Source: Crystallibacter degradans
GTDB lineage: Bacteria; Actinomycetota; Actinomycetes; Actinomycetales; Micrococcaceae
DNA: 64,000 nt
Assembly: GCF_012952295.1 (NCBI RefSeq)
Contig: NZ_JABBCH010000002.1
Coordinates: forward strand, 1-64,000
Direction: 5' to 3'
Shown here: positions 22,340 through 47,481 of the stretch, in pieces
Position numbering within the stretch: the stretch's first letter is position 1
How the letters are laid out: every line of letters starts with the position of its first letter
Notes under the pieces: model-generated
What the model saw: the letters and a program-made list of their open reading frames with translations, nothing else
Databases searched by the model: none
What the model was told of the DNA's origin: nothing
Program-made: the position numbers and the translations under genes

Positions 22340-22719
22340 TCGGCGGGTCCTCCCTGCTCGGCCGCGGGCAGTGCCGCGCGGAACTTTGACGTCGCTGCTG
22401 CAAATGTCTTGCGGTAGTCGTTGCTCAGAGCGCCGAAGTCTGCGTTCGCTGCCGGAGGCAATGCCCTGACGACAACAGAAAGCCCCTGTGGATAAGCCCT
22501 GAGACTCTGCACCGCGATCTCCCGCAGTCTCCGTTTAACGAGATTGCGGGTTACAGCGTTCCCCACGGCCTTGGACACGATAAAGCCGAAAGTGCTCGGC
22601 TGATCCAGGGCAGTGGGAACCGCGTATAACACTAAGTTCCGACGCCCAGAGCGGGCGCCGGAACGTACAGTTGTTGAGAAGTCTGCCGAAAGGCGCATCC
22701 GGTTTTTACTGGACAGCAT
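22336..22719 (-). CDS. rnpA: Ribonuclease P protein component
   Basis: 127 residues. The signature [15 protein letters not shown] near the middle is the RNR-box that contacts the RNA subunit. With the rnpB RNA (not in this window) it removes 5' leaders of pre-tRNAs. It starts about 75 bases downstream of rpmH and overlaps yidD by 4 bases, the standard rpmH-rnpA-yidD arrangement. The last 15-20 residues form an Ala/Glu-rich extension. Confidence 0.95.
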
Positions 22720-22793
22720 AATAATGAAAGCTGCCTACTCCGGTGCGCGGCTGCTGAAAGACAAAGCAGCCGGATTCGACAAACGGCAGTTGG

Positions 22794-22931
22794 TTAGGCC
22801 GACAGTTCGGTACGGCCCTTGCCGCGGCGCGCTGCCAGGATGGCACGGCCGGCGCGGGTACGCATGCGAAGGCGGAAGCCGTGCTTCTTGGCACGACGGC
22901 GGTTATTCGGCTGAAAAGTCCGCTTGCTCAC
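22794..22931 (-). CDS. rpmH: 50S ribosomal protein L34
   Basis: 45 residues from a GTG start at 22931 with GGAG about 8 bases upstream. The sequence begins (M)[17 protein letters not shown] and ends KGRTELSA, diagnostic of L34. It is highly basic, and nearly every position is conserved in the family. The gene is divergent from dnaA; the 428-base gap between them carries DnaA boxes. Confidence 0.97.
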
Positions 22932-23359
22932 GGTGGTTACTCCAAGACGATCGACAGATGCGCCTCAGCCCGTTGCAACAAGGGGAAGTAACAGGCGGAC
23001 GCTCTATTGGGCATCTGCTCTGGCAACCTCACAAAAGGCATGGGGGTATGCACAAAGCAGACACGAAGGACTACATAACGGTAGGGGTTCGAACGGCGTT
23101 CCGTCAAACCAGCATCGTGCCGTTGATATCCACCGGTGTGGATAAACACCTGTGGACAACCTCCTGCCGACCGCTTTCGCCGGCGCCGAACGCATTAGTT
23201 CACCTAGGCCACTTTCCAGCTATCTTCTACCAGAATCATCATCTACTCTTGGCAAGAGCACTTTATCCACGTCTGTGTATAACTCTGTGGATGAAGGTCC
23301 TGGATCCGGTAAAACGGGAAGTGGAGGAATTTGCATTACTGCTATTTGAGGGGTTTTCG
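22932..23359. promoter_or_regulatory. rpmH-dnaA intergenic region with DnaA boxes
   Basis: Boxes matching or close to TTATNCACA occur at 23137-23145 (perfect, reverse), 23151-23159 (TGTGGACAA), 23263-23271 (TTATCCACG), 23274-23282 (TGTGTATAA) and 23286-23294 (TGTGGATGA). They are placed to autoregulate dnaA and may form the left part of a bipartite origin. Promoters for rpmH and dnaA must lie here, but I cannot place them securely. Confidence 0.75.
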
Positions 23360-24778
23360 GTGGATACGGACCAAATAAACGACGTCGGAAGCTCCTGGCG
23401 TAAGGTGGTTCGCACCTTGGAACGGGACGACAGAGTCAGTCCCCGGCAACGAGGTTTCGTAGTCCTCGCCCAGGCCAAGGGCTTGATTGGAACCACGCTG
23501 TTGGTAGCTGTTCCCAATGAACTCACCAGGGAAGTCTTCCAATCCCAGCAGCTCAAGGAACCGCTGCAGGATGCCCTCCGCGATGTCTTCCAGGACGAGA
23601 TTCTCTGTGCATTCTCTGTCGATACCGACATGGTCACTGAGTCGGAACCGGAACCCGAACCGGAAGCTGCCCCGTCGCCGGTCAGCACCGCCGGTGACGA
23701 AGTTCGTGCGCAGCCCACTCCGCCGAGTACCTCGCATGAATTCGGCCGGCTCAATCCGAAGTACATTTTCGACACCTTTGTCATCGGTTCATCGAATCGT
23801 TTTGCACATGCAGCTGCCGTGGCCGTGGCCGAAGCTCCTGCAAAGGCCTACAACCCGCTCTTCATCTACGGCGATTCAGGGCTGGGCAAAACCCACCTGC
23901 TCCACGCGATCGGGCACTATGCCCGGCATCTCTACAACGGGATCCGCGTCCGCTATGTAAATTCCGAAGAATTCACGAACGACTTCATCAACTCCATTCG
24001 TGACGATGAAGGCGCAAGCTTCAAACAGTTGTACCGGAACGTGGACATTCTCCTCATCGACGACATCCAGTTCCTTGCCAACAAGGATGCAACGCAGGAA
24101 GAGTTCTTCCACACTTTCAACGCGCTGCACAACCACAACAAACAGGTGGTCATTACCTCGGATCTTCCGCCGAAGCAGCTTTCCGGGTTCGAGGAACGGA
24201 TGCGCTCACGTTTCGAGTGGGGCCTGCTGACCGACATCCAGCCTCCCGAGTTGGAAACCCGGATCGCGATTCTGCGCAAGAAGGCCATCAGCGAGGGCCT
24301 TTCCGTCCCGGATGAGGTGCTTGAGTACATCGCGTCCAAAATCTCTACCAACATCCGCGAACTCGAAGGCGCGCTGATCCGTGTCACTGCCTTCGCAAGT
24401 CTGAACCGCCAGGCCGTGGACATGGCCCTGGCCGAAATCGTCCTCAAGGATCTGATTACCGACGACGGGGCACAAGAGATCACGTCGACCACGATCCTGG
24501 GCCAGACAGCGGCCTACTTCAAGCTCAGTCTTGAAGAGTTGTGCAGTAAGTCGAGGACCCGCACGCTCGTGACCGCCAGACAGATCGCCATGTACTTGTG
24601 CCGGGAGCTGACGGATATGTCACTGCCGAAGATCGGTCAGGAACTGGGTGGGCGAGATCATACAACCGTCATCCATGCGGATCGAAAGATCCGGGAACTG
24701 ATGGCTGAACGACGCGCCATCTACAACCAGGTAACCGAGCTGACCAACCTCATCAAGCAGCAGCAGCGCGAGAACTAA
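23360..24778 (+). CDS. dnaA: Chromosomal replication initiator DnaA
   Basis: 472 residues from GTG 23360 with GAGGGG 6 bases upstream. The frame is open back to 22613, but that stretch overlaps rpmH and holds no DnaA sequence. Domain I (about 10-85, starting VGSSWRKVV) is followed by a Glu/Pro-rich linker (95-125) and the AAA+ core with Walker A GDSGLGKT at 171-178 and Walker [10 protein letters not shown]. The C-terminal duplex-DNA-binding domain carries the signature [11 protein letters not shown]. It opens the origin by binding DnaA boxes on both sides of the gene. Confidence 0.97.
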
Positions 24779-25336
24779 CACCGTAAAGTCCACTCCCCAG
24801 GTACCCTTCGTACCCTTGGCGATTTTCTGAAGCTTCTCTTTCAGATCCTCAAAGACCGTCCGAAATTAACAGGTGTGGATAAAGCTGTGGATGGTTAAGT
24901 GGAGAACCGCGCTTCATCAGAGGATAACTACCCAGTCGTCTGTGGATCCCAATAATCACAAGGATTTTTGTCCACACGACCTCACAGGCCCCAACGGAAG
25001 AACTGCACATCTTGTGAACAGGGCAATTTGGCCAGCACCCGGGGCTAGAACGAGTTATCCACAGTATCCACAGACGTTATTAACACTACGAATCCCATTT
25101 ATTCAGGCTTTTCCAAATAACATTTGACCCTTCCGATCCCAGCTCACCGATGCCTGATCCTCTGATCCACCGAAATCACCCTCCGGTGTGAGAATGCCTG
25201 TCTGGCGGCTAAGCTTGCACAGAGAATTGTTGTCATTGGTCAACAGCAGCCGCCGGTTCTTTCTGCCGGGAAGAGCGGCAGAGTTGTAACCACTGGCATT
25301 CCCCGGCATGTACGTTGTGAAAGGCGGCACACTTCA
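24779..25336. other. Chromosomal origin oriC (dnaA-dnaN intergenic)
   Basis: 558 bases without a gene. DnaA boxes: 24874-24882 (perfect, reverse), 24886-24894 (TGTGGATGG), 24940-24948 (TGTGGATCC), 24967-24975 (TTGTCCACA), 25055-25063 (perfect, forward) and 25064-25072 (GTATCCACA). An AT-rich stretch follows at about 25073-25130 (GTTATTAACA, then TTTATTC and AAATAACATTT) and is the likely unwinding element. The rest, about 25131-25336, leads into dnaN; its promoter should be there but is not obvious. Confidence 0.88.
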
Positions 25337-35055: not shown

Positions 35056-35129
35056 GGGCGTATAGCTCAGGCGGTTAGAGCGCTTCGCTGATAACGAAGA
35101 GGTCCCAGGTTCAAGTCCTGGTACGCCCA
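35056..35129 (+). tRNA. tRNA-Ile (GAT)
   Basis: 74 bases with a complete cloverleaf. The 7-base acceptor GGGCGTA pairs with TACGCCC, and the discriminator is A. The anticodon loop CTGATAA gives GAT. The T-arm is GGTTCAAGTCC. The 3' CCA is not encoded and must be added by the CCA enzyme encoded at 3178-4677. The gene lies downstream of gyrA, as in most actinobacteria. Confidence 0.97.
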
Positions 35130-35160
35130 CGGAAAACTGTTCCGACTTATGGAGGACGCT

Positions 35161-35277: not shown

Positions 35278-35316
35278 CTCCAAAGCCCGCTAGGTTATAC
35301 TGGTGAGGTTCCTTTC

Positions 35317-35389
35317 GGGGGCATGGCGCAATTGGTAGCGCACCTGCTTTGCAAGCAGGGGGTTAGGGGTTCGAGTCCCCTTGCCTCCA
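35317..35389 (+). tRNA. tRNA-Ala (TGC)
   Basis: 73 bases. The acceptor GGGGGCA pairs with TGCCTCC (one G-T pair), and the discriminator is A. The anticodon loop TTTGCAA gives TGC. The T-arm is GGTTCGAGTCC. There is no encoded CCA. Confidence 0.97.
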
Positions 35390-35397
35390 CCGAACAT

Positions 35398-35432
35398 AAA
35401 GATCCCGGTCCATCAGGACCGGGATCTTTTGT
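35398..35432 (+). terminator. Terminator after tRNA-Ala
   Basis: A perfect 14-base stem (AAAGATCCCGGTCC and complement) with a 4-base loop and a T-run ends the tRNA transcript. Confidence 0.92.
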
Positions 35433-35494
35433 ATGTGCACCCTTGCCCGACGAACAACTGGGAGTTTGCCGCGTGCACACCTTACGGTGAGGAC

Positions 35495-36412
35495 GTGACT
35501 TTCTTCCTCGCCGCGCTGGGTGTCCTGGGCGTCGCCGCTTCTGGCCCCATCATGGCTGCCACGGCTGCACCCGCGCTGGCCATCGCCTTTTGGCGCAACT
35601 TCCTCGGCGGCGTAGTCATGGGCGTGCCCGCTGGCCTTACGCGACGGCAGGAATTCCGCCGGCTCACGACGTCGGACGTGAAGTGGAGTGCCATCGCAGG
35701 ACTTGCGCTGGCCCTCCATTTCGCCTGTTTCATCACGGCACTGCAGCTGACATCCGTTGCTGCTGCTACGGCCCTGGTATGCCTCCAATCGGCCTGGATC
35801 GCGGTTTTCAACCTGTTCCGGGGCATCCGCAGCGCTCCGCAGGTACTCGTGGGCCTGGGGCTGGCCCTTGGCGGCGTCGTCGTGATTTCGGGATTCGACC
35901 TGCAGCTTTCATCCGAGGCCATCATAGGGGACGTACTTGCGGTCGTTGGCGGGGCCATGGCAGGCATTTACACGGTCGCCGGCAGCAAAGTGCGCCGGAC
36001 ACTCTCGACCGGAACCTACACCACCCTGTGCTACGGGATCTGTTCGGGCATCCTGCTGGTGATGTGCCTCGTGTCGGGGCAGTCCCTTGTGGGATTCCCA
36101 CCGGAAGCGTGGATTGGCATTCTGGCCGTGACGGCTGTCGCGCAGCTGATGGGCCACACGGTCTTTAATTACCTGCTCGCCACCTTGAGTCCTCTGGTGG
36201 TCTCCATGATTATCCTGCTGGAGATTCCTGGCGCTGCCATACTGGCAGCCGTGTTCCTGCATGAGGCGCTGCCCTGGGGCACATACCTCGGCCTCGCCCT
36301 CATAATGGCGGGACTTGCCGTCGTCGTTCTGTTTCAGAACCGTTCCGTTCACCGCCGTATGAGAAAGGGCTCGGCCTCCTCCGTCCGGCCCTCGGCACGG
36401 CCGCCGGAGTGA
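35495..36412 (+). CDS. EamA/DMT family transporter
   Basis: About 305 residues if started at GTG 35495. The frame is open back to 35381, but that overlaps the tRNA and terminator; GTG 35435 is the alternative. Ten hydrophobic helices occur in two repeats of five (for example TSVAAATALVCLQSAWIAVF and a matching LSPLVVSMIILLEIPGAAIL), the layout of drug/metabolite exporters. The substrate is unknown. Its stop abuts that of the convergent glycosyltransferase. Confidence 0.85.
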   Translation: MTFFLAALGVLGVAASGPIMAATAAPALAIAFWRNFLGGVVMGVPAGLTRRQEFRRLTTSDVKWSAIAGLALALHFACFITALQLTSVAAATALVCLQSAWIAVFNLFRGIRSAPQVLVGLGLALGGVVVISGFDLQLSSEAIIGDVLAVVGGAMAGIYTVAGSKVRRTLSTGTYTTLCYGICSGILLVMCLVSGQSLVGFPPEAWIGILAVTAVAQLMGHTVFNYLLATLSPLVVSMIILLEIPGAAILAAVFLHEALPWGTYLGLALIMAGLAVVVLFQNRSVHRRMRKGSASSVRPSARPPE

Positions 36413-37252
36413 TCAGATTCCGCCGCGCGGGACAATCTGTTTCGTGCGGGCCTGGTGGACCCTACGCAGGATCTTCGCCGGGTAGTAGACGCTCATGAAG
36501 ATCAGCGTGGGAACCCTCAGCAGCCGCCGTTTAATCTTGTGGTTCTTGTAGGTCCGGTCGAACCGCGTCACGTAATACCGATAATCCTTGGGTGAGTCCT
36601 CCAGCCGGCGGGCGGACATCCCGCTGATCATTTCGGGAACGTACAGGATGCGAAGTGCATGCTCGGCAAGGTGGACGGAGATATCGATGTCCTCATGCAT
36701 CTCGTCTTCTTCGTCGAGGCACACTTCATTGCGGATGATCTCCCAAGCTCCCCTGCGGATGGCCATGTTAGAGCCGAAAAGAAAGTGATACTGCTTCTTC
36801 GCCAGCTTCAGCACGAACCTGCGCATCCGGTCGTCAGCTTGGAGGCCGAAGCGGCGCAGGGGCATGTCGTAGTAGAGCACCGGGCCGGTGGCGGCCATTA
36901 CTTCGGGATCCAGGAAGGCGTTCTGGAGGTGTTCCACCCAGTCCGGTTCCAGGATGGAATCGGCATCGATCCGCCCCAGCACTTCACCGGTGGCGTGGTC
37001 CAAGCCGAAGTTCCGGGTCGGGATAAGGCCTTGTTCCTGATCCTGGGAGAGCAGGACGAGGGGCGCGTCCGGATATTCGTCCTGCATCTGCCGTACGAGT
37101 TCGACTGTCCGATCGGTTGATTTGTTGTCCACAACGATGATTTCGGCAGGAGGTTTCGACTGGGATATGGCCGCGAAAAGACACTGTCGAATCACCGACT
37201 CTTCGTTGAAGGCGGGAATTACAATCGAAACGCTCGGCTTCGGAGTCTGCAT
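36413..37252 (-). CDS. Glycosyltransferase family 2
   Basis: 279 residues. The GT-A fold begins VSIVIPAFNEESVIRQCL (residues 8-25), the nucleotide-sugar metal motif is in GRIDADSI, and the acceptor-side EDEMHEDIDIS motif is present. No clear membrane helix is visible, apart from a weakly hydrophobic C-terminal segment (LRVPTLIFMSVYYPAKIL). It probably transfers a sugar to a cell-surface glycan, with acceptor unknown. It is convergent with the EamA transporter and separated from the helical-repeat gene by a terminator. Confidence 0.87.
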   Translation of the reverse strand: MQTPKPSVSIVIPAFNEESVIRQCLFAAISQSKPPAEIIVVDNKSTDRTVELVRQMQDEYPDAPLVLLSQDQEQGLIPTRNFGLDHATGEVLGRIDADSILEPDWVEHLQNAFLDPEVMAATGPVLYYDMPLRRFGLQADDRMRRFVLKLAKKQYHFLFGSNMAIRRGAWEIIRNEVCLDEEDEMHEDIDISVHLAEHALRILYVPEMISGMSARRLEDSPKDYRYYVTRFDRTYKNHKIKRRLLRVPTLIFMSVYYPAKILRRVHQARTKQIVPRGGI

Positions 37253-37296
37253 GGGACTGAATCTATCAGCTCCCGTGGGGATTCATCCGGAGTTAA

Positions 37297-37330
37297 AAAT
37301 GAGGTCCCTGCCGAAGCAGAGACCTCATTT
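37297..37330 (-). terminator. Terminator of the helical-repeat gene
   Basis: The stem AAATGAGGTC/GACCTCATTT contains an inner CTGC/GCAG pairing and lies 20 bases past the stop at 37350 on the reverse strand. It ends in an A/T run suitable for either direction. Confidence 0.8.
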
Positions 37331-37349
37331 ACCATCTGTGGAAGATGCG

Positions 37350-38366
37350 TTACTTGTTGCTGTCCTTCGCCGCATCCGAGGCCGTTCCGGCCTTGTCTGC
37401 TGCATCCTTGGCCGCTGAATTGGCGACTCGTGCTGCGCCCTCCGCGGCGGAGGTCGTCGTGGCTGCCGAGGCATCGGCAGCGTTCTTGGCGGCCTCGGCG
37501 GACCGATCTACTGAATCCTTGGCAGCTTCGGCGGCTTTGTCCGCGTCTGCCTTTGCCTCGGTGGCAGCGTGCTTGGCGGTGCCGGAAACGCTCGCTGCTG
37601 CGTCGGCAGTTTTGTCAGCCAACGTTGCCGAAGCGGCTGCGGCAGCTTGCTTTCCTGTGTCTGCGACATCTGCAGTCGATGCAGTCGGAGCGGCCGAAGT
37701 GTTGGGAACCGGAGTAGGGGTCGGCGTGACCGGGGTCTTCCAAGGATCTTCAACCGGCCGGGAGGCACGCCATGCTGCGACACCGGCAGCCGCAGCCGCA
37801 CCAATAACGCCGGCAATAAGCCAGCCCTTGCCCTTGCCGGACTTCTGCTGCTTTTTCAGTTCCTTGGCTGCTTCCTTGGCGGATGCAGCGGCCGCCTTCT
37901 GGGCCTTGCGGATCATCTTCTTCGACCCCACGACCTTTACCGCGGCCGACTTGTCGAGGGAACGCGAAAGGTTCTCCCCCGCATTTCCGACCCGCTCGGA
38001 CAGAGTCGGTATGTACTCGCCGACGACCTTGTCCCGGGCGTGGGTGATGGCCGGAGATGCCTTGTCCAATGTGCCCTGGATGCGCGGAGTGGCGTCATCG
38101 ACAATCTGGGCAATCTTCGGGGCAATCTTGTCCAGCTCAGCCTGAATCTTGGGGGTCACTGTTGAGACGCCCTGTGACAGGTCATGAGCGGCGCGCTGAA
38201 TGCCCTCCTGGATTCTGGGAGAAGCTGTTCCGATGCCCTTTTCGATACGCGGCACCGCCCAGTTCAACGCAGCCTCTACCCGAGGAGTGGCCCAATCACG
38301 GGCATTTTCCACACCGACAGTGACAGTGCCCTCTAGATCACGGGCTAAACGTTCGGTTTTCTTCAC
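37350..38366 (-). CDS. Amphipathic helical-repeat protein with one membrane segment
   Basis: About 338 residues from GTG 38366, which follows GGGAGG; the frame opens at 38423 without a ribosome-binding site. Residues about 20-125 hold at least six imperfect repeats centred on x-P-R-I/V (ATPRVEAAL, AVPRIEKGI, ASPRIQEGI, VTPKIQAEL, IAPKIAQIV, ATPRIQGTL) at 11- or 22-residue steps, as in apolipoprotein-like helices. A basic Lys/Ala stretch, a hydrophobic Gly/Ala helix (about 183-203), a Pro/Thr linker and a long Ala/Asp/Lys coiled tail follow. I do not know its function; it may be a membrane- or envelope-associated stress protein. Confidence 0.75.
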   Translation of the reverse strand: MKKTERLARDLEGTVTVGVENARDWATPRVEAALNWAVPRIEKGIGTASPRIQEGIQRAAHDLSQGVSTVTPKIQAELDKIAPKIAQIVDDATPRIQGTLDKASPAITHARDKVVGEYIPTLSERVGNAGENLSRSLDKSAAVKVVGSKKMIRKAQKAAAASAKEAAKELKKQQKSGKGKGWLIAGVIGAAAAAGVAAWRASRPVEDPWKTPVTPTPTPVPNTSAAPTASTADVADTGKQAAAAASATLADKTADAAASVSGTAKHAATEAKADADKAAEAAKDSVDRSAEAAKNAADASAATTTSAAEGAARVANSAAKDAADKAGTASDAAKDSNK

Positions 38367-38519
38367 TACTACCTCCCGGAGATGGTGACGGTCCACACTC
38401 AGACTACTTCGTGCGTGCGACAAGGTGCTATGCCGGTCCTTGAATAAGGGGCATTTTCACTGAACGCGGAACCAGGCGCCGCTGGCAATTTCCTTGCAGC
38501 CGCGTGGAAGAATGGCTCT

Positions 38520-39062
38520 ATGACTGCTATTCCTACAGCTAAAGCAACCATTCACACCAACCATGGCGACATCGTGGTCAACCTCTTCGGCAACCATGCC
38601 CCGAAGACGGTCAAGAACTTCGTCGGCCTCGCTACGGGCGAAATCACTTGGAAGCACCCGGCGACCGGCGAAGAAACCAACGCCCCCCTTTACGATGGCG
38701 TCATCTTCCATCGCATCATCAAGGACTTCATGCTGCAGGGCGGAGATCCGCTCGGACAGGGCGTAGGCGGCCCGGGCTACCAGTTCGACGACGAGATCAA
38801 CCCCGATCTGGACTTCACCGAGCCCTACAAGCTCGCGATGGCCAATGCCGGCCTCCAGGGCGGCCGCGGAACGAACGGCTCGCAGTTCTTCATCACGACG
38901 ACCCCCACAACTTGGCTGCAAGGAAAGCACACGATCTTCGGTGATGTGACCGACGAGTCCTCACGCGCGGTTGTGGACAAGCTGAACACTGTGGCTACGG
39001 ACATGCGGGACAAGCCGCTGGAAGACGTTGTTATCAACAACATCACAGTCGAGCAGCTCTAA
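38520..39062 (+). CDS. ppiA: Peptidyl-prolyl cis-trans isomerase (cyclophilin)
   Basis: 180 residues. The cyclophilin core shows FHRIIKDFMLQGGDP (residues 64-78) and NGSQFFITT, covering the catalytic arginine and proline-binding pocket. There is no signal peptide, so it is cytoplasmic. It is divergent from the helical-repeat gene. A hairpin terminator follows, then the rhomboid gene, the usual actinobacterial ppiA-rhomboid-crgA order. Confidence 0.95.
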   Translation: MTAIPTAKATIHTNHGDIVVNLFGNHAPKTVKNFVGLATGEITWKHPATGEETNAPLYDGVIFHRIIKDFMLQGGDPLGQGVGGPGYQFDDEINPDLDFTEPYKLAMANAGLQGGRGTNGSQFFITTTPTTWLQGKHTIFGDVTDESSRAVVDKLNTVATDMRDKPLEDVVINNITVEQL

Positions 39063-39073
39063 GACCTCAACCA

Positions 39074-39109
39074 TCCCCGTCCGGCCGAGTCCGGGCGGGG
39101 ACATTTTTC
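39074..39109 (+). terminator. Terminator after ppiA
   Basis: The stem TCCCCGTCCGG pairs with CCGGGCGGGGA (one G-T) and is followed by CATTTTTCTT. It ends 33 bases before the rhomboid start. Confidence 0.82.
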
Positions 39110-39141
39110 TTAACCAGCTTTCCTCCAGGAGACGCCCCCTC

Positions 39142-40014
39142 ATGTCCTACGGGATGCCAGCGGAACAGCCGCAATCCGAAGTTCCTGTCTGTCCACGCCA
39201 TCCGGACCGCATTTCCTACGTCCGGTGCCAGCGCTGCGGGCGACCGACTTGCCCCGAGTGCCAGCGGACGGCCGCCGTCGGTATCCAATGTGTGGACTGC
39301 GTCAAGGAACAGGCGCGCAATCTTCCGACCCATCGCACGGTCTACGGAGGAGCGGTCACCACCGGCAGGCCGGTGGTGACGCTCACCATCATCGCGCTTT
39401 GCGTTGCGATCTATATTCTGCAGTGGGTGTTGCCCGGCGTTATTCAGGCGAACCTTGTCTATGCTCCTCTTTACACTGCGCAGGTCCCGGGACTGCCCTT
39501 CGAACCGTGGCGGATGATCACTGCAGGCTTCCTGCATTCAACGGGTCTTCTCCTGCACATCGCGTTTAACATGTATGCGCTCTGGATCTTCGGGCAACAC
39601 CTTGAACCGTTGCTGGGGCGTCTGAAATTCGTGGCGCTCTACCTCCTATCGATCTGGGGCGGGTCCGTTGCTGTGCTCCTGCTGGGCGAAATAAACCAAG
39701 GTGTCGTGGGCGCCTCCGGCGGCGTCTTCGGGCTTTTCACAACCCTGTTGATCGTCCAGTTGCAGCGGAAACAGGACGTCCGCGGCATCCTGGTGCTGAT
39801 CGGCATCAATGTTGTCATCAGTTTCTTCCCCGGCATCTCGTGGCAGGCGCACATTGGTGGCATGGTCACCGGTGCGTTGGCTGCTGCCGCCATTGCTTTC
39901 GTTCCCCGTGGCGAGAACCAGCAGCGGTTGCAATGGGCAGGCCTGGCGGGCATTGCGGTGTTGCTGGTCGTACTGACCTGGATCGGGTCATCAATGGTCA
40001 CGCTGCCCCAATAG
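39142..40014 (+). CDS. Rhomboid family intramembrane serine protease
   Basis: 290 residues from ATG 39142 with CAGGAG upstream. The frame extends back over ppiA, but that is a shadow. A cysteine/histidine-rich N-terminus (C17, H20, C29, C32, C37, C40, C52, C55) resembles a B-box-type zinc finger. Six or seven helices follow, with the catalytic serine in GASGG and the histidine in WQAHIGG, plus the HxxxN-type HIAFNMY. It cleaves membrane substrates within the bilayer; targets are unknown. Confidence 0.92.
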   Translation: MSYGMPAEQPQSEVPVCPRHPDRISYVRCQRCGRPTCPECQRTAAVGIQCVDCVKEQARNLPTHRTVYGGAVTTGRPVVTLTIIALCVAIYILQWVLPGVIQANLVYAPLYTAQVPGLPFEPWRMITAGFLHSTGLLLHIAFNMYALWIFGQHLEPLLGRLKFVALYLLSIWGGSVAVLLLGEINQGVVGASGGVFGLFTTLLIVQLQRKQDVRGILVLIGINVVISFFPGISWQAHIGGMVTGALAAAAIAFVPRGENQQRLQWAGLAGIAVLLVVLTWIGSSMVTLPQ

Positions 40015-40884
40015 CTCCAAGGGTCAGACGGTCGGTACTGCTGCAGCCGCGGCGGTGCCGGCCGTTCCCGTTTAAGCTCATTCTTAGCCTCCGAAGCTCA
40101 GGGAGCACCTGTGGAAACATCCAGCCGGGCGGCTCGGCGGAAGGCGGTAGATCTCTCCTGAGGACCGCACGTAAGTTGTTCACAGTTGTGCACAGAGTTT
40201 TCCACAGGGGTGCATAACTCTTTGTCCCGGCCCAGCTTAAATTCTGTGATCACTGTCAGCGCAGTATCCACAGCTGTGGAATTACATGTGTGTAACTTAT
40301 CCCCGTTGTGCATAACCTCTGTGGATAAGTTGAGGGGACCGCGAAATAAACAGTAGAACATATAATCGAAGGCGTATCCCCACGAAAAGCCAGGGCTGTG
40401 GATAACTATCAATGGGAGCCCGCCTTCTGCGGGCCCTCCACGCCGAGGCGCCCCTAGGAGTCCTGCCAGTGGGCTTGAACCGCGTAGCTACGAGGTGCCC
40501 CGGCGGGAACGTGGTATTTCCGCCGCTGCGAACCCGCTGATTCTGGTCTCAAGGTTTAGACCGCTCCGCTAGCCACGGGCTCCGCCAAAAGTGGGGGCAC
40601 AACGGGAAGGCGAAGAAGTTGGTCGCCAGAGAAGGACATTCATCGACTCGCACGCCCGGCGCCATCCCTGTTTTCACATCTTTCCGGCGGTTATCCACAA
40701 GAGTTATCAACAGCGTGGATAACTTACACACCTGTGATTAACACAAATGTCTAGCTCCGGAGCGGCTCAACTGCGGCAACAATCCAAGGCCAAGGCAAAG
40801 TTTCCCCAAAGTTATACACGCCTGTGGATAACTCCGTGCACAACTTGTGCAAACTACATATTTTGGTAATTTTCGACCGATCTA
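40015..40884. other. Second DnaA-box cluster (origin-like or DnaA-titrating)
   Basis: 870 bases with no gene. TTATNCACA boxes: perfect at 40307-40315, 40320-40328, 40397-40405, 40691-40699 and 40823-40831. Near-matches occur at 40176-40184, 40186-40194, 40198-40206, 40264-40272, 40704-40712, 40714-40722 and 40812-40820. Inverted pairs lie at 40294/40323 (AACTTATCC) and 40690/40715 (GTTATCCAC). A/T-rich sequence sits at about 40850-40887. The 40410-40680 middle is GC-rich with a hairpin (GGCGGGAA/TTTCCGCC) but no boxes. The density equals or exceeds that of oriC itself. Confidence 0.8.
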
Positions 40885-41673
40885 AAACGAGCGCGCGGTC
40901 CGGTACAGCTCTACGTTGCCGGCAAGCCCGACGCGCCGCCGATATTGCTGCTGCATGGCGCGATGCTGGCCAGTGCCGAGTTGTCCTGTCAGCTTGTCGC
41001 GCCGGAGCTGGCTGCCCATGGCAGCAGCCGATCACGCAGGAGTTGTGTGAACAAGTTATTTTCGAATTGCTCAGCTATCTGGGCCTGCGACGGATCGCCA
41101 TAGTGGGGACTTCCAGGGGAGCGGGGCTCGCGATCGGCTACGCCCTGAATAATCCAGGCACTGTAACCCGCTTGGTTCTGGCAGTTCCAGACGGCATCGG
41201 GGCCAGACGGCGCGCCCAATTTGCGACGTGGCTGATCATTCATCTGCCCTTCGTGCTGACAACAGCATTCAGATACTTCGCTCGTTCACCTGCGGCCGTT
41301 CGAAGGTCGCTTGCTGCTTACCTCACGGCAAGGGCACACACCCATGGATTTGGGCTTCATCCTCCGTCTGGCGAGCTCGAAAGCTATCGCTAGGTGCAGC
41401 CACAAGGAGAAGATCCTCGACGAGTGGCAGATCAGCGCCTACGGGCCATTCAGGATGCGCCTCGATTTTCTGCCCCGCCCGGGACAGCTGGACCTTCCCA
41501 CCCTGTGGATTCACGGCCAGGACGACGATTTGGTGGGACGTAAAGAAATGCAGGCTGCCGCCGCAGCAACCGGAGGGAGACTGGAAACCATTCCGGATGC
41601 GGGGCACCTGGCCACCCTGGACCAACCGGAATACTTTGCCGACTTGGCTGCCGAATTCCTCGGTCAGCAGTGA
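40885..41673 (+). pseudogene. Broken alpha/beta-hydrolase gene
   Basis: Three pieces of one hydrolase lie in two frames. About 40900-41020 encodes the first strand and oxyanion region (ILLLHGAMLAS). About 41022-41337, in another frame, encodes the nucleophile elbow (IAIVGTSRGAGLAIGY). About 41311-41673, back in the first frame, encodes the acid and histidine end (LWIHGQDDDLV, then DAGHLATLDQPEYF). No start codon precedes the first piece, which fades into the DnaA-box cluster. At least two frameshifts and a 5' truncation make it a pseudogene. Confidence 0.78.
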
Positions 41674-42038
41674 GCGCGTGGATGCGCAGAAGTGGAAGTC
41701 GCCCCTAGCCCGGCCACTAGACGAGGTGTCGCGTCACGTTAGCTGGCTTGCCGCAAATTGCGAAATATAGGGAAATTTTTGGGAAACATCCCCGCAGTCG
41801 TGGTGCGCTGTCCGGTAACGTATTGAATCGAGTGTCGGCTCGACCAGCCGAAACCGAGACGGTCGCCGACAGGCCAGGCGACGTTGAGCAAGATTTGCCG
41901 TGTAATACCGCCATCGGCGTCGCCGCGCACAGCCCGACGGCCCGCCGGTAGAGGATCCGCCTCCTGTATGCATGTGCTGTGATGCCCGACCACCATGCGT
42001 TCTTCCGGATCGCCGGATGCTCAGAAAAGGACATACAA
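41674..42038. other. Spacer before malic enzyme, no gene seen
   Basis: 365 bases. A short A/T-rich stretch (about 41757-41785) stands out, but I cannot place a promoter. Frames on both strands give nothing recognisable. Confidence 0.5.
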
Positions 42039-43220
42039 GTGACTGCTGAAACCGTGAACTCGACGCCGATCGAGCTGACAACCGAAGAGATTTTCGCTGC
42101 CCATGAGGGTGGCAAGCTCACGGTCGGACTGACCGCGCCGCTCAATGACAAGCGCGATCTCTCCATCGCCTACACTCCGGGTGTGGCACAGGTCAGCCGT
42201 GCCATCCATGCCGAGCCGGAACTGGCCCAAAAGTACACCTGGGCTTCCCGTCTCGTCGCGGTGGTCAGCGACGGTACGGCCGTCCTGGGACTCGGCAACA
42301 TCGGTGCCAGCGCGTCCCTGCCGGTGATGGAAGGAAAGGCTGCACTTTTCCAGAAATTCGCCGGCCTGGATTCCATTCCGCTGGTCATTGAGTCCACCGA
42401 TGTTGACGAGATCGTTGAAACCGTTGTGCGGCTGCGTTCGAGTTTCGGAGCCGTCAACCTCGAGGACATTTCCGCGCCCCGGTGCTTCGAGATCGAAGAG
42501 CGCCTCATCGAAGCCCTGGACATGCCGGTGATGCACGATGACCAGCACGGCACCGCCGTCGTTGTTCTGGCCGCCCTCACCAACGCCGCCAAGTTCGTCC
42601 AGCGCGAGCTCTCGTCCCTGAAGGTTGTCGTTTCAGGAGCCGGCGCGGCAGGCATCGCCGTGGCCGAGATCCTCATGACCGCCGGTATCTCCGACGTGAC
42701 GATCCTGGATTCCAAGGGCATCATCCATTCGGGCCGCCAGGACCTGTCCGGGATCAAGGCCACGTACGCCGAGCGCACCAATCCGCGCGGAACCACCGGC
42801 GGCAGCGCCGAAGCGCTCGAAGGCGCGGATGTGTTCGTGGGGGTTTCGGCCGGTACGATTCCGGAAGAGCAACTCGCAGCGATGTCCGACGACGCCATTG
42901 TCTTCGCATTGTCGAACCCGGATCCGGAGGTTCATCCCGAGATCGCCCGCCGGTACGCCAAGGTAGTGGCCACCGGGCGCAGTGATTTCCCGAACCAGAT
43001 CAATAACGTTCTGGCCTTCCCCGGTATCTTCCGCGGGGCTCTGGATTCCGGTGCGAAGAAGATCACCTCGGAGATGAAGGTAGCCGCCGCCCAGGCCATC
43101 GCCGACATTGCTGCCAGCGATCTCAGCGCCGACTACATCGTCCCCAGCCCGCTGGATCCGCGGGTAGCACCCGCCGTCACGGCTGCGGTGAGCGCCGTCG
43201 CCGAGGCGAGCAAGGCGTAA
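42039..43220 (+). CDS. NAD(P)-dependent malic enzyme
   Basis: 393 residues from GTG 42039, preceded by AAAGGA; the frame is open from 41979 without a better start. It oxidatively decarboxylates malate to pyruvate. The malic N-domain has SIAYTPGVAQVSRAI and the catalytic-lysine region PVMEGKAALFQKFAGLDSIP. The metal-binding ISAPRCFEIEE and DDQHGTA motifs follow, then the NAD-binding VVSGAGAAGIAVAE. It is the short (about 390-residue) bacterial type. A strong terminator follows. Confidence 0.95.
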   Translation: MTAETVNSTPIELTTEEIFAAHEGGKLTVGLTAPLNDKRDLSIAYTPGVAQVSRAIHAEPELAQKYTWASRLVAVVSDGTAVLGLGNIGASASLPVMEGKAALFQKFAGLDSIPLVIESTDVDEIVETVVRLRSSFGAVNLEDISAPRCFEIEERLIEALDMPVMHDDQHGTAVVVLAALTNAAKFVQRELSSLKVVVSGAGAAGIAVAEILMTAGISDVTILDSKGIIHSGRQDLSGIKATYAERTNPRGTTGGSAEALEGADVFVGVSAGTIPEEQLAAMSDDAIVFALSNPDPEVHPEIARRYAKVVATGRSDFPNQINNVLAFPGIFRGALDSGAKKITSEMKVAAAQAIADIAASDLSADYIVPSPLDPRVAPAVTAAVSAVAEASKA

Positions 43221-43231
43221 CAAAAAATAAA

Positions 43232-43274
43232 AAAGCAGCGGCCGCCGGAGATAGTTTCCGGCGGCCGCTGCTTT
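43232..43274. terminator. Bidirectional terminator between malic enzyme and crgA
   Basis: An 18-base stem (AAAGCAGCGGCCGCCGGA and complement) with A-rich and T-rich flanks serves both convergent genes. Confidence 0.92.
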
Positions 43275-43295
43275 ATCCCGCGGTCTGGAAAGCTT

Positions 43296-43547
43296 CTATG
43301 AACGCCACTTGGTGGTCATCAGGAAGCCCGCGATCGCAATGCCGAATCCGATCATGATGTTCCAGGAGCCGGCGGCGGCGATCGGCCACTGTGCCTCGGT
43401 GATGTAGAAAACGATGATCCACAGCAGGCCGATGATCATCAAACCGAACATCACCGGCTTGAACCACACCGGGTTCGGCTTGTACTCCGGCGCCGCCGTC
43501 GTCTGCGGCCTGCGTTCGCTTCTTTTGCGGGGCTTAGACTCTGGCAT
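43296..43547 (-). CDS. crgA: Cell division protein CrgA
   Basis: 83 residues from ATG 43547, with AGGAGGA upstream; the frame opens at 43610 but the length and ribosome-binding site favour this start. A basic N-terminus (PESKPRKRSERRP) precedes the conserved NPVWFKPVMFGLMIIGLLWI helix, then the second helix (MIGFGIAIAGFLMT). CrgA is an actinobacterial divisome coordinator. It is divergent from the sortase gene, with the wall cluster beyond it. Confidence 0.95.
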   Translation of the reverse strand: MPESKPRKRSERRPQTTAAPEYKPNPVWFKPVMFGLMIIGLLWIIVFYITEAQWPIAAAGSWNIMIGFGIAIAGFLMTTKWRS

Positions 43548-43754
43548 GGGTCCTCCTTCACCGGCCTGAAGCATCAGCGAAAACCGGCGGTTGTCATCAG
43601 TAGCGGACATTCTCTGCCGACTATAGAAGGTATTCTGCTTGAGAGACCTTTAATCAGCATGTTCTAGCTGTTTAGTCTACTAATACTGTTCTGCGGTTGT
43701 GACCACTCCGCTCCTCCCGGAAGTGCGCGGTCACAACACCAACCTGGAGGTGCC

Positions 43755-44579
43755 GTGGCGGACGCTGTGGATCCTGCTGTCCCGGGCCGCCGGCGACGGC
43801 GAAAGGCCAGCGGGCGCAGGTCCCCCGTGCAGGTTGTCGTTCAAGTGATCGGCGAGCTGCTGATCACCTTGGGCCTGGTGGCGCTGCTGTTTGTGGGCTG
43901 GGAATTGTGGTGGACCAACATCGAGTCCAACCAGAAGCAGGAAGAGGCCCTCACCTCGCTCTTCGAGGAATTCGAGCTGCCCGCTGCTGCACCGTCCGCC
44001 AGCCCGGAAGCGAACAGCGGGGAAAAAAATAACGACGACGCCGAGCCGCCGGTTCTGGACAAGCCCGAATACGGCGAGACGTTCGCCGTCGTCTATGTGC
44101 CGCGCTTCGGGGAGGACCACGCCCGGCCGGTAACCAGCGGTGTCGGGGTTGATGTGCTGGACTCGCTGGGCCTTGGCCATTACCCGGGAACCCAGATGCC
44201 GGGCGAGGTAGGAAACTTCGCGGTTGCCGGACACCGGCAGACCCACGGGCAGGTACTGGACCTGATCCACACCCTGGTCCCCGGCGACAAGATCTATGTG
44301 CAGACCAAGGACGGCTACTACACGTACACCTTCCGCAACAACCAGATTGTGATGCCGGACCGCGTGGATGTCATTGCTCCGGTGCCCACCAAGCCCGAGG
44401 CCGAACCGACGGAACGGTATCTGACCATGACCGCGTGCAACCCACGGTACGGTGCCACGGAACGCATCATTGCCTACGCCGTGATGGAGAGCTGGCAGCC
44501 CATGTCCGAGGGGCCGCCGGCCGAGATTGCCGAGCGCGTGGCCGAGTATGCCGCCGCTCCGGCAGGAAGCGGGAGCTGA
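43755..44579 (+). CDS. Class E sortase
   Basis: 274 residues from GTG 43755 with GGAGGT upstream. A basic N-terminus and one membrane helix (about 26-50) precede an extracellular sortase fold. The catalytic histidine is in VAGHRQTHG, the cysteine in LTMTACNP, and the arginine in ATERIIAYA. It attaches LPxTG/LAxTG-type proteins to the wall. Location upstream of trpG-pknB is usual for actinobacterial srtE-like genes. A 54-residue membrane ORF follows 2 bases later. Confidence 0.92.
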   Translation: MADAVDPAVPGRRRRRKASGRRSPVQVVVQVIGELLITLGLVALLFVGWELWWTNIESNQKQEEALTSLFEEFELPAAAPSASPEANSGEKNNDDAEPPVLDKPEYGETFAVVYVPRFGEDHARPVTSGVGVDVLDSLGLGHYPGTQMPGEVGNFAVAGHRQTHGQVLDLIHTLVPGDKIYVQTKDGYYTYTFRNNQIVMPDRVDVIAPVPTKPEAEPTERYLTMTACNPRYGATERIIAYAVMESWQPMSEGPPAEIAERVAEYAAAPAGSGS

Positions 44580-44581
44580 TT

Positions 44582-44746
44582 ATGTACGGTTGGATTTTCC
44601 GCCATTTGCCCGGGCCGCTCTGGGTGCGGATCATTGTATCCATCCTGTTGATTGCCGGGGCAGTCCTGCTGCTTTTGCAGTTTGTCTTCCCCTGGCTTTC
44701 GCAATTCAACCCGCTCACCGATTCCACGATTGGCACGATCGAATAA
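44582..44746 (+). CDS. Small membrane protein, 54 aa
   Basis: ATG at 44582, two bases after the sortase stop. The start MYGWIFRHLPGPLWVRII is followed by a long hydrophobic helix (about residues 17-42), and it ends TDSTIGTIE. trpG begins two bases after its stop, so it is an operon member. I recognise the type from actinobacterial sortase-trpG loci but know no function. Confidence 0.7.
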   Translation: MYGWIFRHLPGPLWVRIIVSILLIAGAVLLLLQFVFPWLSQFNPLTDSTIGTIE

Positions 44747-44748
44747 TC

Positions 44749-45393
44749 ATGACCACCACTCCCCGCATCCTGGTTGTCGATAACTACGACAGCTTTGTCT
44801 ACACCCTCGTGGGCTACCTGCAGCAGCTTGGAGCCGAGACGACCGTTGTCAGGAACGACGACGTGACACTTGCCGAAGCAATCGAGCTGGCCGGAGCGCG
44901 GGACGGCGTGCTGGTCTCCCCCGGGCCCGGAAACCCCGCCGAGGCGGGTGTGTGCGTGGATCTGATCCGCTGGTGCGGCGAGAACAGCAAGCCGATGCTC
45001 GGCGTCTGCTTGGGCCATCAGGCGCTGGCCGAGGCCTATGGCGGCGTAGTGACCCATGCAGCGGAGCTGATGCACGGCAAGACGTCCCAGGTGCTGCACC
45101 GCGGCCAGAATGTCTTTGCGGGCGTCCCCAGCCCCTTCACCGCCACGCGCTACCACTCCCTGGCGGCAGTCCGGGAAACCATTCCCGCGCAGCTGGAGAT
45201 CACCGCCGAAACCGATGGCGGGGTCATCATGGGCCTGGCGCACCGCGAAGCCCCGCTGTGGGGCGTGCAGTTCCACCCCGAGTCCGTGCTGACCGAAGGC
45301 GGCTACCTCATGCTGGGCAACTGGCTGGAATCGCTGGGCATGGAAGGCGCAGCGGAGCGCGCGGCGACCCTGAGCCCGCTGATCACCAAGTAG
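44749..45393 (+). CDS. trpG: Glutamine amidotransferase, anthranilate / aminodeoxychorismate synthase component II
   Basis: 214 residues from ATG 44749. It is a class I glutamine amidotransferase starting ILVVDNYDSFVYTLVGYL. The nucleophile cysteine is in GVCLGHQALAEAYGG, and the HPES motif carries the catalytic histidine and glutamate. It supplies ammonia for anthranilate or p-aminobenzoate synthesis. The large subunit is not nearby, as is usual for this pknB-linked copy, so TrpG versus PabA cannot be decided. It is convergent with pknB. Confidence 0.9.
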   Translation: MTTTPRILVVDNYDSFVYTLVGYLQQLGAETTVVRNDDVTLAEAIELAGARDGVLVSPGPGNPAEAGVCVDLIRWCGENSKPMLGVCLGHQALAEAYGGVVTHAAELMHGKTSQVLHRGQNVFAGVPSPFTATRYHSLAAVRETIPAQLEITAETDGGVIMGLAHREAPLWGVQFHPESVLTEGGYLMLGNWLESLGMEGAAERAATLSPLITK

Positions 45394-45408
45394 CCGCAGC
45401 CCGGATAG

Positions 45409-45439
45409 CCTCTAGACCTACGTAGCTTCGGCCTAGAGG
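45409..45439. terminator. Hairpin between convergent trpG and pknB
   Basis: CCTCTAGACC pairs with GGCCTAGAGG (one mismatch). The pknB stop lies within it. The T-run is poor. Confidence 0.35.
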
Positions 45440-47481
45440 AACGGGATGTCTGAGTCGTCGTAGGCGCGGCTGTTACTGTCGTCGCGACCGTCGTTGCCGC
45501 TGTCGTCCCGGCCGCCGTCGTTATTTCCCCGGCCGCGGTCATCGCCGTTATTGTTCCCGTTATTCTCATCCGAATCCGTCGGCGGATCCGTGGGCTCCGG
45601 TTCCGTCGGTTCCGGGGACGGCTCCGGCGGCGCGACGGCAACAGTAATGACGATTTCCGTGCCCTGCGCAACATTGCTGCCGGCATTGTGGCTCTGCGCG
45701 GTCACCGTGCCGGGCTCGACAACCTCGTTTTCCACCTGCTCAACCCGGTAAGGCAATGCGACGGCGGGGTCGTCCTGGAGCAGGCTGATGGCCTCCTCCT
45801 CCGTCTTGCCGAGGAGCGCCGGGACGGTTACCAGGCCATTTGAAATGACCAGGTCGACGGTGGAGTCAGTGCGGACCTTCTCACCGGCCTTGGGGTCCGT
45901 AGCGATGACATTCCCGCTCGGAACTACGGCGCTGTTGGCCGAGACGTTCTCCCCCGGGACCAGACCGAGCTGGCGAAGCTTGTCCCGGACTTCGCCCTCT
46001 GTGCGGCCGCTGAAGTCCTCCGGAATTGTGACGAACTCCTTGCCCTCCGACACGTAGATGATGACTTCGCTGTCAGGCAGGGCTGCTGTGCCGCCCTCGG
46101 GGTCGGTGCTGATGACTTCGCCTTCGGCTACTTCATCGCTGAACCTGGACTCGATCTGCGGCACCAGGCCATGGTTGAAAATGGTGTTGGAGGCCTCCGT
46201 CTGTTCCATACCGGCCACCTGAGGTACGGCGACCATGTCGGGTTGGGCGTTGCGCAGGTAGTTGAAGAGGTAAAAACCACCGCCGACCAGCAGGAGTATC
46301 AGCGCGATCACCAGCACCGTGGTCCACGCGCGTCGTCGGGTACGGCGGCGTGTATCGACTTCTTCGGATTCGTTGCCGACCTGCAGTGCCATCGGGATGG
46401 CGGCCGTGTGGGGCGATGCGTTGATGGCGCCGGTCTGGTCCAGTCCATCGGTGTCGTACTGCTCGTCGGGAGATTCCCCGGCTTCGGGCGTGCTGGGGCC
46501 GTTACTGCCCGGTGTTCCTACCGGAACGGGGAACGGAGCCGCTGTGAAGGCAGCAGTCGGAGCGTTCTGTGCGGGCATCGCTTCGGTCCGGGCCTCGTCG
46601 GCACCGACCACGATGCCTTCTTGGGCGCCTTGAAGGGCCGCACTGAAGGAGGCTGCGTCCTGGAAACGGTCTGTTTTGTCTTTCTGCAGTGCGCGCGCCA
46701 ACACGGAATCCAAGGCGGGCGTGACGTTCCGGTTGAAGCTGCTGGGCGGTTCCGGCAGTTCTCTGACATGTTGGTAGGCCACGGAAACCGGGCTGTCGCC
46801 GATGAACGGAGGGCGGCTGGCCAGCATTTCATACAACAGGCAGGCCGCAGAGTACAGGTCGCTCCGTGCGTCCACCGTTTCACCGCGTGCCTGCTCCGGA
46901 GAAAGGTACTGCGCGGTACCGAGGACGGCCTGGGTCTGGGTCATCGTCGCGGCGGAATCCGCCAGGGCGCGCGCGATGCCGAAGTCCATGACCTTCACCT
47001 GGTCGTCCGGGGTCACCATGACGTTGGCGGGTTTGATATCCCGGTGCACTATGCCGGAGCGGTGGCTGTACTGCAGAGCTGCCAGCACGCCCAGGGCGTA
47101 CTCGACCGACTTTTCGATGGTCAGTTCGCCCGACCGGATCAGGTCGCGAAGGGTGCGGCCGCGCACGTACTCCATGACAATAAAGGGTGCTTTGACATCA
47201 TGGGCGGCTGAACCGGGGAGCTCCTGCTCGCCCGTGTCGTACACCGCGACGATGGCCGGGTGGTTCAGCCCGGCGACAGTCTGCGCTTCCCGGCGGAAAC
47301 GGGACTGGAAGGAGGGGTCACGGGCCAGGTCGGCACGCAACTGCTTGATCGCCACGGTGCGTCCCAGACGGACGTCACGACCGAGGTGGACATCGGCCAT
47401 GCCTCCACGGCCAATGAGTTCACCTACCTCGTAACGTCCGTTCAGGACCTGGGGCGCTTCCACTGAGTACTTACCTTCCAT
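45433..47481 (-). CDS. pknB: PASTA-domain Ser/Thr protein kinase PknB
   Basis: 682 residues. The kinase domain (about 17-275) has GRGGMADVHLG, VAIKQL, HRDIKPANVMV and DFGIARA, all catalytic residues intact. A Pro/Ala juxtamembrane region precedes one helix (about 395-415). Three extracellular PASTA repeats follow, then a low-complexity Pro/Glu and Asn/Asp/Gly/Arg-rich tail. It senses wall precursors and phosphorylates wall-growth regulators. It lies 27 bases downstream of pknA and is the last gene of the fhaA-to-pknB series. Confidence 0.96.
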   Translation of the reverse strand: MEGKYSVEAPQVLNGRYEVGELIGRGGMADVHLGRDVRLGRTVAIKQLRADLARDPSFQSRFRREAQTVAGLNHPAIVAVYDTGEQELPGSAAHDVKAPFIVMEYVRGRTLRDLIRSGELTIEKSVEYALGVLAALQYSHRSGIVHRDIKPANVMVTPDDQVKVMDFGIARALADSAATMTQTQAVLGTAQYLSPEQARGETVDARSDLYSAACLLYEMLASRPPFIGDSPVSVAYQHVRELPEPPSSFNRNVTPALDSVLARALQKDKTDRFQDAASFSAALQGAQEGIVVGADEARTEAMPAQNAPTAAFTAAPFPVPVGTPGSNGPSTPEAGESPDEQYDTDGLDQTGAINASPHTAAIPMALQVGNESEEVDTRRRTRRRAWTTVLVIALILLLVGGGFYLFNYLRNAQPDMVAVPQVAGMEQTEASNTIFNHGLVPQIESRFSDEVAEGEVISTDPEGGTAALPDSEVIIYVSEGKEFVTIPEDFSGRTEGEVRDKLRQLGLVPGENVSANSAVVPSGNVIATDPKAGEKVRTDSTVDLVISNGLVTVPALLGKTEEEAISLLQDDPAVALPYRVEQVENEVVEPGTVTAQSHNAGSNVAQGTEIVITVAVAPPEPSPEPTEPEPTDPPTDSDENNGNNNGDDRGRGNNDGGRDDSGNDGRDDSNSRAYDDSDIPFL

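What the first reader, a model, noticed from the sequence alone, without database searches (positions are those of the whole stretch)
40176..40831. Second, origin-like DnaA-box cluster 15 kb from oriC
Seen: five perfect TTATNCACA boxes and at least seven near-matches in 656 bases, some as inverted pairs, with A/T-rich DNA at the right edge, and no gene. Chance could not give this in GC-rich DNA. Inference: a datA-like titration site, a DnaA-reactivating site, a backup origin, or a plasmid origin captured by the chromosome.
Basis: partly seen in the sequence, partly recalled or inferred. Interest (0 to 1): 0.8.

Follow-up and report, generated by a model that had tools for sequence, protein, structure and literature searches.

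The report
Ancient second DnaA-binding site near crgA
About 15 kilobases from the replication origin, near a cell-division gene, this bacterium carries a dense cluster of binding sites for the replication starter protein DnaA; similar clusters sit at the matching place in many bacteria of the same phylum, so it is probably an old, overlooked control site for chromosome copying.

Summary
In detail: five perfect TTATNCACA boxes and ten one-mismatch boxes at 40176-40831, the densest cluster in the window. In the own genome only this place and the dnaA region have three or more perfect boxes close together. Against three same-genus relatives, 149 of 155 box positions are invariant versus 247 of 546 others.

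It is not a captured plasmid, and a second origin gets no support. It is the local form of a DnaA-box cluster at the 3' side of crgA. Two or more boxes lie within 300 bp of the crgA stop in 61 of 76 sampled genomes of the class (23 of 26 families) and in 19 of 40 from elsewhere in the phylum (9 of 19 families); later windows give 0-3. All 80 Streptomyces loci fetched have 2-5 perfect boxes in the rhomboid-crgA gap. In mycobacteria this gap (Rv0010c-Rv0011c) is one of five strongly DnaA-bound regions, role unknown, with "no obvious correspondence" elsewhere (PMC7738170).

Most likely it acts on DnaA itself, working like datA, DARS or DBC sites; the sign of its effect is undecided.

The parts
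40170..40219 (.). Left block L1: boxes 40176+, 40186+, 40198+, 40209- at 10-12 bp spacing
   Evidence: 45 of 50 positions invariant in 4 same-genus sequences
40262..40330 (.). Core array: boxes 40264+, 40287-, 40307- (in the near-palindrome TTGTGCATAA), 40320-; the part shared with other genera of the family
   Evidence: query 176-240 = window 40265-40329; 74-92% identity in the listed matches that cover it; 64 of 69 invariant
40397..40405 (-). Perfect DnaA box TTATCCACA
   Evidence: invariant in alignment A4
40406..40680 (.). Spacer, poorly conserved
   Evidence: 81 of 275 positions invariant
40681..40745 (.). Right block R1: boxes 40691+, 40704+, 40714-, 40733-; imperfect inverted copy of the core
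   Evidence: 50 of 65 invariant
40801..40870 (.). Right block R2 with A/T-rich edge: boxes 40812+, 40823- and a weak one at 40835-; inverted copy of L1
   Evidence: 67 of 70 invariant
38520..39062 (+). Cyclophilin-type peptidyl-prolyl isomerase (ppi)
   Evidence: PF00160
39100..40014 (+). Rhomboid protease; its 3' end faces the cluster
   Evidence: PF01694
40824..41673 (+). Alpha/beta hydrolase pieces in two frames (broken gene or frameshift), between cluster and crgA
   Evidence: ORFs; Abhydrolase matches near or below the cut-off
41979..43220 (+). Malic enzyme, between cluster and crgA
   Evidence: PF00390/PF03949; same order in G062 and G151
43296..43610 (-). crgA (cell-division protein CrgA); the cluster belongs to its 3' side
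   Evidence: PF06781; PDB 2MMU match
22487..25085 (.). DnaA boxes on both sides of dnaA: the ordinary oriC region, for comparison
   Evidence: DnaA TIGR00362 and DnaN TIGR00663

Best explanation
The cluster is a non-coding DnaA-assembly site outside oriC, old in the phylum and tied to the 3' side of crgA. DnaA binds boxes placed about one helical turn apart and forms an oligomer there (binding is published for mycobacteria; for this organism it is inferred). It neither starts replication nor drives a promoter; it acts on DnaA itself. Because it lies near the origin it is copied soon after initiation; the doubled site then holds, and perhaps inactivates, DnaA and so helps to limit re-initiation (sink or datA-like reading, about 0.4). 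The opposite sign, a DARS-like site that returns DnaA to the ATP form, is the main alternative inside this explanation (about 0.2, counted in the 0.62). In the window's genus the site is enlarged as an inverted repeat and separated from crgA by other genes, yet the boxes are kept. Shown here: boxes, conservation, place. Inferred: binding, oligomer, timing, effect.
For: Box positions 149/155 invariant versus 247/546 elsewhere (boxes = TTRTNCACA with up to one mismatch, since TTGTCCACA is the strong box in M. tuberculosis and S. coelicolor, table passage of PMC4285127). Place: 61/76 class genomes and 19/40 outside have two or more boxes within 300 bp of the crgA stop; windows at 400-700, 800-1100 and 1100-1400 give 3/75, 1/75, 1/75 and 1/39, 0/38, 0/38; 120 permuted patterns average 2.0 and 0.6 genomes, maxima 20 and 5. 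Streptomyces: 10.8 perfect boxes per kb in the gap versus 0.018 around it, 80 of 80 loci. The rhomboid-crgA gap is convergent in 33 of 33 loci where both genes were found, so a promoter there is unlikely. Commonest box spacings are 10-13 bp, then 23-24. dnaN-to-crgA distance is 8.9-28 kb in 24 of 25 rows. In M. tuberculosis the gap is one of five strongly DnaA-bound regions in vitro, its homologue is bound in M. smegmatis in vivo, site mutants have longer cells, and neither flanking gene changes in dnaA mutants (PMC7738170). datA lies close to oriC in E. coli (PMC4585315 passage); removing six B. subtilis clusters gives early initiation (PMC5295017 passage).
Against: No binding or replication data exist for this organism. 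Mycobacterial site mutants have longer cells, like dnaA mutants that resemble hypomorphs, with initiation rate unchanged; a simple sink should over-initiate when lost. Boxes are few or absent there in 15 of 76 class genomes (f6, f36, half of f28, others) and 21 of 40 outside, so the site is not kept everywhere. One review says the B. subtilis clusters play no significant role (PMC5295017 passage). In mycobacteria the gap also lies upstream of Rv0010c. Sampling followed CrgA score and family, not chance.
Confidence: 0.62

Rival explanations
1. DARS-like site (a sub-case of the best explanation): DnaA-ADP gathers on the cluster, releases ADP and returns as DnaA-ATP, so the site promotes initiation.
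For: In mycobacteria, changes in this site give longer cells, like dnaA variants that resemble hypomorphs, as loss of a positive regulator might (PMC7738170).
Against: In E. coli, moving DARS1 close to the origin perturbs control (PMC5295017 passage). The three-box DARS core arrangement was not compared. Initiation rate was unchanged in the mycobacterial mutants.
Confidence: 0.2
2. Coordination site: DnaA bound here couples replication to cell division or places the origin region in the cell, which would explain the tie to crgA, a division gene.
For: Boxes sit at the 3' side of crgA also where rhomboid was not found; mycobacterial site mutants have altered cell length with unchanged initiation rate.
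Against: In the window and in G009, G039 and G114 the cluster is kept but separated from crgA. Conserved gene order near oriC alone could explain the link.
Confidence: 0.13
3. Backup or second replication origin.
For: More strong boxes than oriC, a conserved A/T-rich edge, flat GC skew between dnaA and crgA in this genus with the minimum beyond the cluster.
Against: Minima 11-15 kb past dnaN also in Streptomyces and a mycobacterium-like genome; among five other family members the minimum is within 1.4 kb of the dnaN start in G114, G191 and G192 but 15-17 kb past it in G146 and G024; ordinary boxes are present around dnaA.
Confidence: 0.05
4. DnaA as a transcription factor for neighbouring genes.
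For: DnaA regulates genes elsewhere (abstract of PMC8203912, listing); in mycobacteria one neighbour starts near the site.
Against: Convergent 3' ends in 33 of 33 loci with both genes; flanking genes unchanged in mycobacterial dnaA mutants. In the window the hydrolase pieces start at the cluster's right edge, so this is not wholly excluded here.
Confidence: 0.05
5. Plasmid or phage origin captured by the chromosome, or a misassembled copy of oriC.
For: Dense boxes, inverted repeats and an A/T-rich edge look origin-like.
Against: No match at E 1e-5 in collections of 72,556 plasmid and 50,697 phage records; matching place in many lineages; few words shared with oriC beyond boxes.
Confidence: 0.01

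Closest known systems
M. tuberculosis / M. smegmatis DnaA site Rv0010c-Rv0011c (Hicks et al. 2020, PMC7738170; abstract, sections 7 and 9 and found passages seen)
   Same: Same place (3' side of crgA = Rv0011c, table passage in PMC3989709); a cluster of DnaA boxes with a palindrome of two boxes; bound by DnaA in vitro and, in M. smegmatis, in vivo
   Different: There a 155-bp gap next to Rv0010c; here about 700 bp with an inverted repeat, beside rhomboid and separated from crgA by other genes. The authors saw no obvious correspondence in other species.
Streptomyces coelicolor DnaA-box clusters H69, H24 and D78 (Smulczyk-Krawczyszyn et al. 2006; recalled, nothing seen, paper not held)
   Same: DnaA-box clusters near but outside oriC; one of them may be the crgA gap, since 80 of 80 fetched Streptomyces loci have boxes there
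   Different: Which of the three is the crgA gap could not be checked. The one with a reported deletion effect (D78, recalled) may be another site: G211 has a four-box cluster about 97 kb from its dnaA region.
E. coli datA
   Same: Non-coding DnaA-box cluster close to oriC, its place kept among E. coli strains (PMC4585315 passages)
   Different: Depends on an IHF site and its spacing to boxes 2 and 3; no such site was tested here. No shared ancestry shown.
E. coli DARS1/DARS2
   Same: Non-coding sites of several DnaA boxes acting on DnaA
   Different: Core of three boxes, flanking DNA or IHF/Fis needed; arrangement not compared
B. subtilis DnaA-box clusters (DBCs)
   Same: Clusters outside oriC; removing all six gives early initiation (PMC5295017 passage)
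   Different: Six clusters, other loci; here one dominant cluster in the genome

Membership tests
crgA-linked DnaA site (mycobacterial Rv0010c-Rv0011c type) | Lies on the 3' side of crgA, near oriC | tested here: met
   Between rhomboid and crgA, 15 kb from dnaN; similar in relatives. Other genes separate it from crgA here.
crgA-linked DnaA site (mycobacterial Rv0010c-Rv0011c type) | Cluster of DnaA boxes with a palindromic pair | tested here: met
   the pairs at 40186 and 40306 are near-palindromes, not perfect ones
crgA-linked DnaA site (mycobacterial Rv0010c-Rv0011c type) | Bound by DnaA | not testable with these tools
   Published only for mycobacteria
datA | DnaA boxes plus an IHF site, needed for DnaA-ATP hydrolysis | not testable with these tools
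   IHF sites and hydrolysis were not examined
datA | Short distance to oriC, so copied early | tested here: met
   About 15 kb from dnaN in the window; 8.9-28 kb to crgA in 24 of 25 rows, G114 51 kb
DARS | Core of three boxes in fixed arrangement that promotes ADP release | not tested
   Arrangement not given in the passages read
Replication origin (oriC type) | GC-skew minimum at the site | tested here: inconclusive
   Broad minimum 26-46 kb, lowest point 45.7 kb; broad or shifted minima elsewhere too
Replication origin (oriC type) | Unwinding element and fork start | not testable with these tools
   Only a conserved A/T-rich edge
Plasmid replicon | Initiator gene nearby or plasmid relatives | tested here: not met
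   None among the nine neighbouring proteins scanned; no plasmid or phage match

The most novel reading that the evidence does not exclude
A single DnaA-control locus has stayed at the 3' side of crgA since early in the history of the Actinomycetota, and is this phylum's equivalent of datA/DARS: one dominant site outside oriC that sets DnaA activity and ties replication to division. The mycobacterial site with recurrent changes in clinical strains would be one instance of it, and the enlarged inverted array in this genus another.
Probability: 0.5. Interest if true: 0.82.

Novelty: new variant of a known kind. Interest (0 to 1): 0.7.

Why it matters
How actinobacteria limit replication to once per cycle is poorly known; the E. 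coli and Bacillus regulators are largely not the ones they use (recalled). A DnaA-bound site in mycobacteria was reported with no obvious counterpart elsewhere and no mechanism. Finding boxes at the matching place in 23 of 26 sampled families of the class and 9 of 19 outside it turns a species curiosity into a conserved element that can be tested in harmless laboratory strains, with natural variants (compact, enlarged, displaced, lost) for comparison.

Tried and rejected
Second origin from GC skew: the flat skew between dnaA and crgA looked suggestive but cannot tell. Minima past the dnaN start: G062 18.4 kb, G151 19.2, G146 17.2, G024 14.7, G191 1.4, G192 1.1, G114 0.4 kb; Streptomyces G211 11.3, mycobacterium-like G461 14.7, G276 8.6 kb; for G325 the lowest point was at the edge of the fetched stretch, with a local low near +16 kb. 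GC3 skew per gene did not separate the cases. The dnaA row of that table and the 'dnaA' hits come from a query in a wrong frame and were not used (dnaN used instead); the pabA query also held stops.

Captured plasmid or phage origin: no match. Protein: no Pfam match for the two antisense ORFs. RNA: no Rfam or tRNA match in the cluster.

DNA similarity understates the spread: 101 of 197 family genomes matched, but G039, which had no match, has 18 boxes (up to one mismatch) in 1.1 kb there.

Papers: 'CrgA' with 'DnaA boxes' gave none; DnaA, Streptomyces, H24 and titration together none; the five terms with D78 none; Rv0010c, Rv0011c and DnaA gave three papers, of which only PMC7738170 was opened. 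That the phylum-wide conservation is not in print rests only, in a library without most subscription papers.

Rows dropped before the counts: L054 (283-bp flank), L274 (contig ends; not entered), second copies of genomes fetched twice, the window itself, and L101-L180, which were counted apart. The 80 Streptomyces loci are the best 80 of a capped list, closest to the Streptomyces query, and include two from one strain.

Full report
Observation. The window has 11 perfect TTATNCACA boxes (0.45 expected), five of them at 40307-40831. With one mismatch allowed there are 15 between 40176 and 40831, the densest 700 bp in the window, ahead of the boxes on both sides of dnaA. The own genome has 57 perfect TTATNCACA; only the dnaA region and this place have three or more close together. 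No RNA gene and no protein-family match over it.

Anatomy. The boxes come in runs at about 10-13 bp spacing. The left blocks (40184-40219, 40280-40328) recur inverted on the right (40810-40845, 40691-40739); a gapped alignment of the two halves scores 133.5 against at most 69 for 200 shuffles. Aligned with three same-genus relatives, 149 of 155 positions inside boxes are invariant against 247 of 546 outside; L1, core and R2 with the A/T-rich edge are 90-96% invariant, R1 77%, the spacer 29%. Boxes, spacing and A/T-rich edge are thus kept.

Family. A DNA search with 40090-40880 matched 101 of 197 genomes of the family (25 of 32 genera), mostly through the core 40265-40329. Of the 30 loci read (1.5-kb flanks, the window's own included), 28 show rhomboid and 10 show crgA. 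In the window, G062 and G151 a malic enzyme lies between cluster and crgA. In G114 the best core match is 26.7 kb and crgA 51 kb past dnaN. G039 had no DNA match but has 18 boxes in the gap region.

Class and phylum. CrgA (PF06781) was found in 293 of 296 class genomes and in 105 of 246 drawn from the phylum. In 40 class loci (my reading of its table) the top-scoring 600-bp stretch overlaps the rhomboid/ppi-crgA gap in 26 (one a tie) and is the best one outside the dnaA-dnaN region in 6 more; in 8 it is not (L068, L070, L073, L077, L078, L080, L090, L091). Profile over 60 genomes: 51 perfect boxes in the first 250 bp after the crgA stop, 5 in the next 250, 0-1 per 250-bp bin out to 3 kb, 1 in the 250 bp before. 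Enlarged set: 61 of 76 class genomes (23 of 26 families) and 19 of 40 others (9 of 19 families) have two or more boxes (up to one mismatch to TTRTNCACA) in the first 300 bp; later windows give 3/75, 1/75, 1/75 and 1/39, 0/38, 0/38; 120 permuted patterns average 2.0 and 0.6 genomes with maxima 20 and 5. Families without two boxes in the class: f6, f36 and f33 (f33 has two perfect boxes farther inside the gap); in f1 two of three members miss because the cluster lies farther away; two of four miss in f28. Genomes were chosen from CrgA listings and by family, not at random.

Streptomyces. All 80 fetched loci (best 80 of a capped list) have 2-5 perfect TTRTNCACA boxes in the gap: 284 in 26 kb against 27 in 1.48 Mb around it. 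In their alignment the box columns are mostly 95% or more identical, and the boxes flank a terminator-like hairpin (my reading).

Published binding. Hicks et al. 2020 (PMC7738170; abstract, sections 7 and 9, passages) found five strongly bound regions for M. tuberculosis DnaA in vitro, among them Rv0010c-Rv0011c, and homologues of the same five by ChIP-seq in M. smegmatis; they saw no obvious correspondence in other species. Rv0011c is crgA (PMC3989709 passage). A mycobacterium-like genome in my set (G461; CrgA close to PDB 2MMU and 9NM2) has three boxes there. The window's cluster is thus the positional counterpart of a site that binds DnaA in mycobacteria.

Function. The gap is convergent in 33 of 33 loci where both genes were found, so promoter control is unlikely in general; in mycobacteria a gene does start beside it. 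crgA lies 8.9-28 kb past dnaN, on the gyrase side, in 24 of 25 rows (three genomes appear twice; G114 51 kb). That suits a site copied soon after initiation, as argued for datA in E. coli (PMC4585315 passage). B. subtilis clusters restrain initiation jointly, though the same review calls their role insignificant (PMC5295017 passages). Against a simple sink, mycobacterial site mutants have longer cells, like dnaA mutants, with initiation rate unchanged; that would fit a DARS-like or coordination role. I commit to 'a locus that acts on DnaA', lean to sink or inactivation, and leave the sign open.

Origin reading. Cumulative GC skew is flat from about 26 to 46 kb with its lowest point at 45.7 kb; G062 and G151 are alike. 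In five other family members the minimum is within 1.4 kb of the dnaN start in three and 15-17 kb past it in two. Streptomyces (11 kb past) and a mycobacterium-like genome (14.7 kb past) are shifted too. The skew does not decide. No plasmid or phage relative was found.

Names. 

Noticed in passing
window 40824-41673: An alpha/beta hydrolase is split over two reading frames next to the cluster: a broken gene or a sequencing frameshift.
   Followed up: partly
G211:C1 4406103-4406414 (unnamed, Streptomyces-like): A second compact cluster of four TTRTCCACA boxes about 97 kb from the dnaA region, perhaps the D78 cluster of S. coelicolor (recalled name).
   Followed up: no
L261 (G039) 448-1576: A relative has 18 boxes in about 1.1 kb at this locus in what look like repeated sub-arrays, so the site may expand in some genera.
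   Followed up: partly
G105:C176 6624-9372 (L007 in part): Seven listed matches to the cluster on one small contig, some overlapping on opposite strands, suggesting several sub-arrays.
   Followed up: no
window 40352-40363 and 40760-40781: Conserved non-box blocks between the boxes; possible sites of a second protein.
   Followed up: no
Streptomyces gap, L101-L180: The boxes flank a long conserved hairpin that looks like a two-way terminator between rhomboid and crgA.
   Followed up: no
window 26000-46000: Broad flat zone in the GC skew over the gyrase genes; skew minima shifted past dnaN in several actinobacterial genomes could mislead origin-finding programs.
   Followed up: partly
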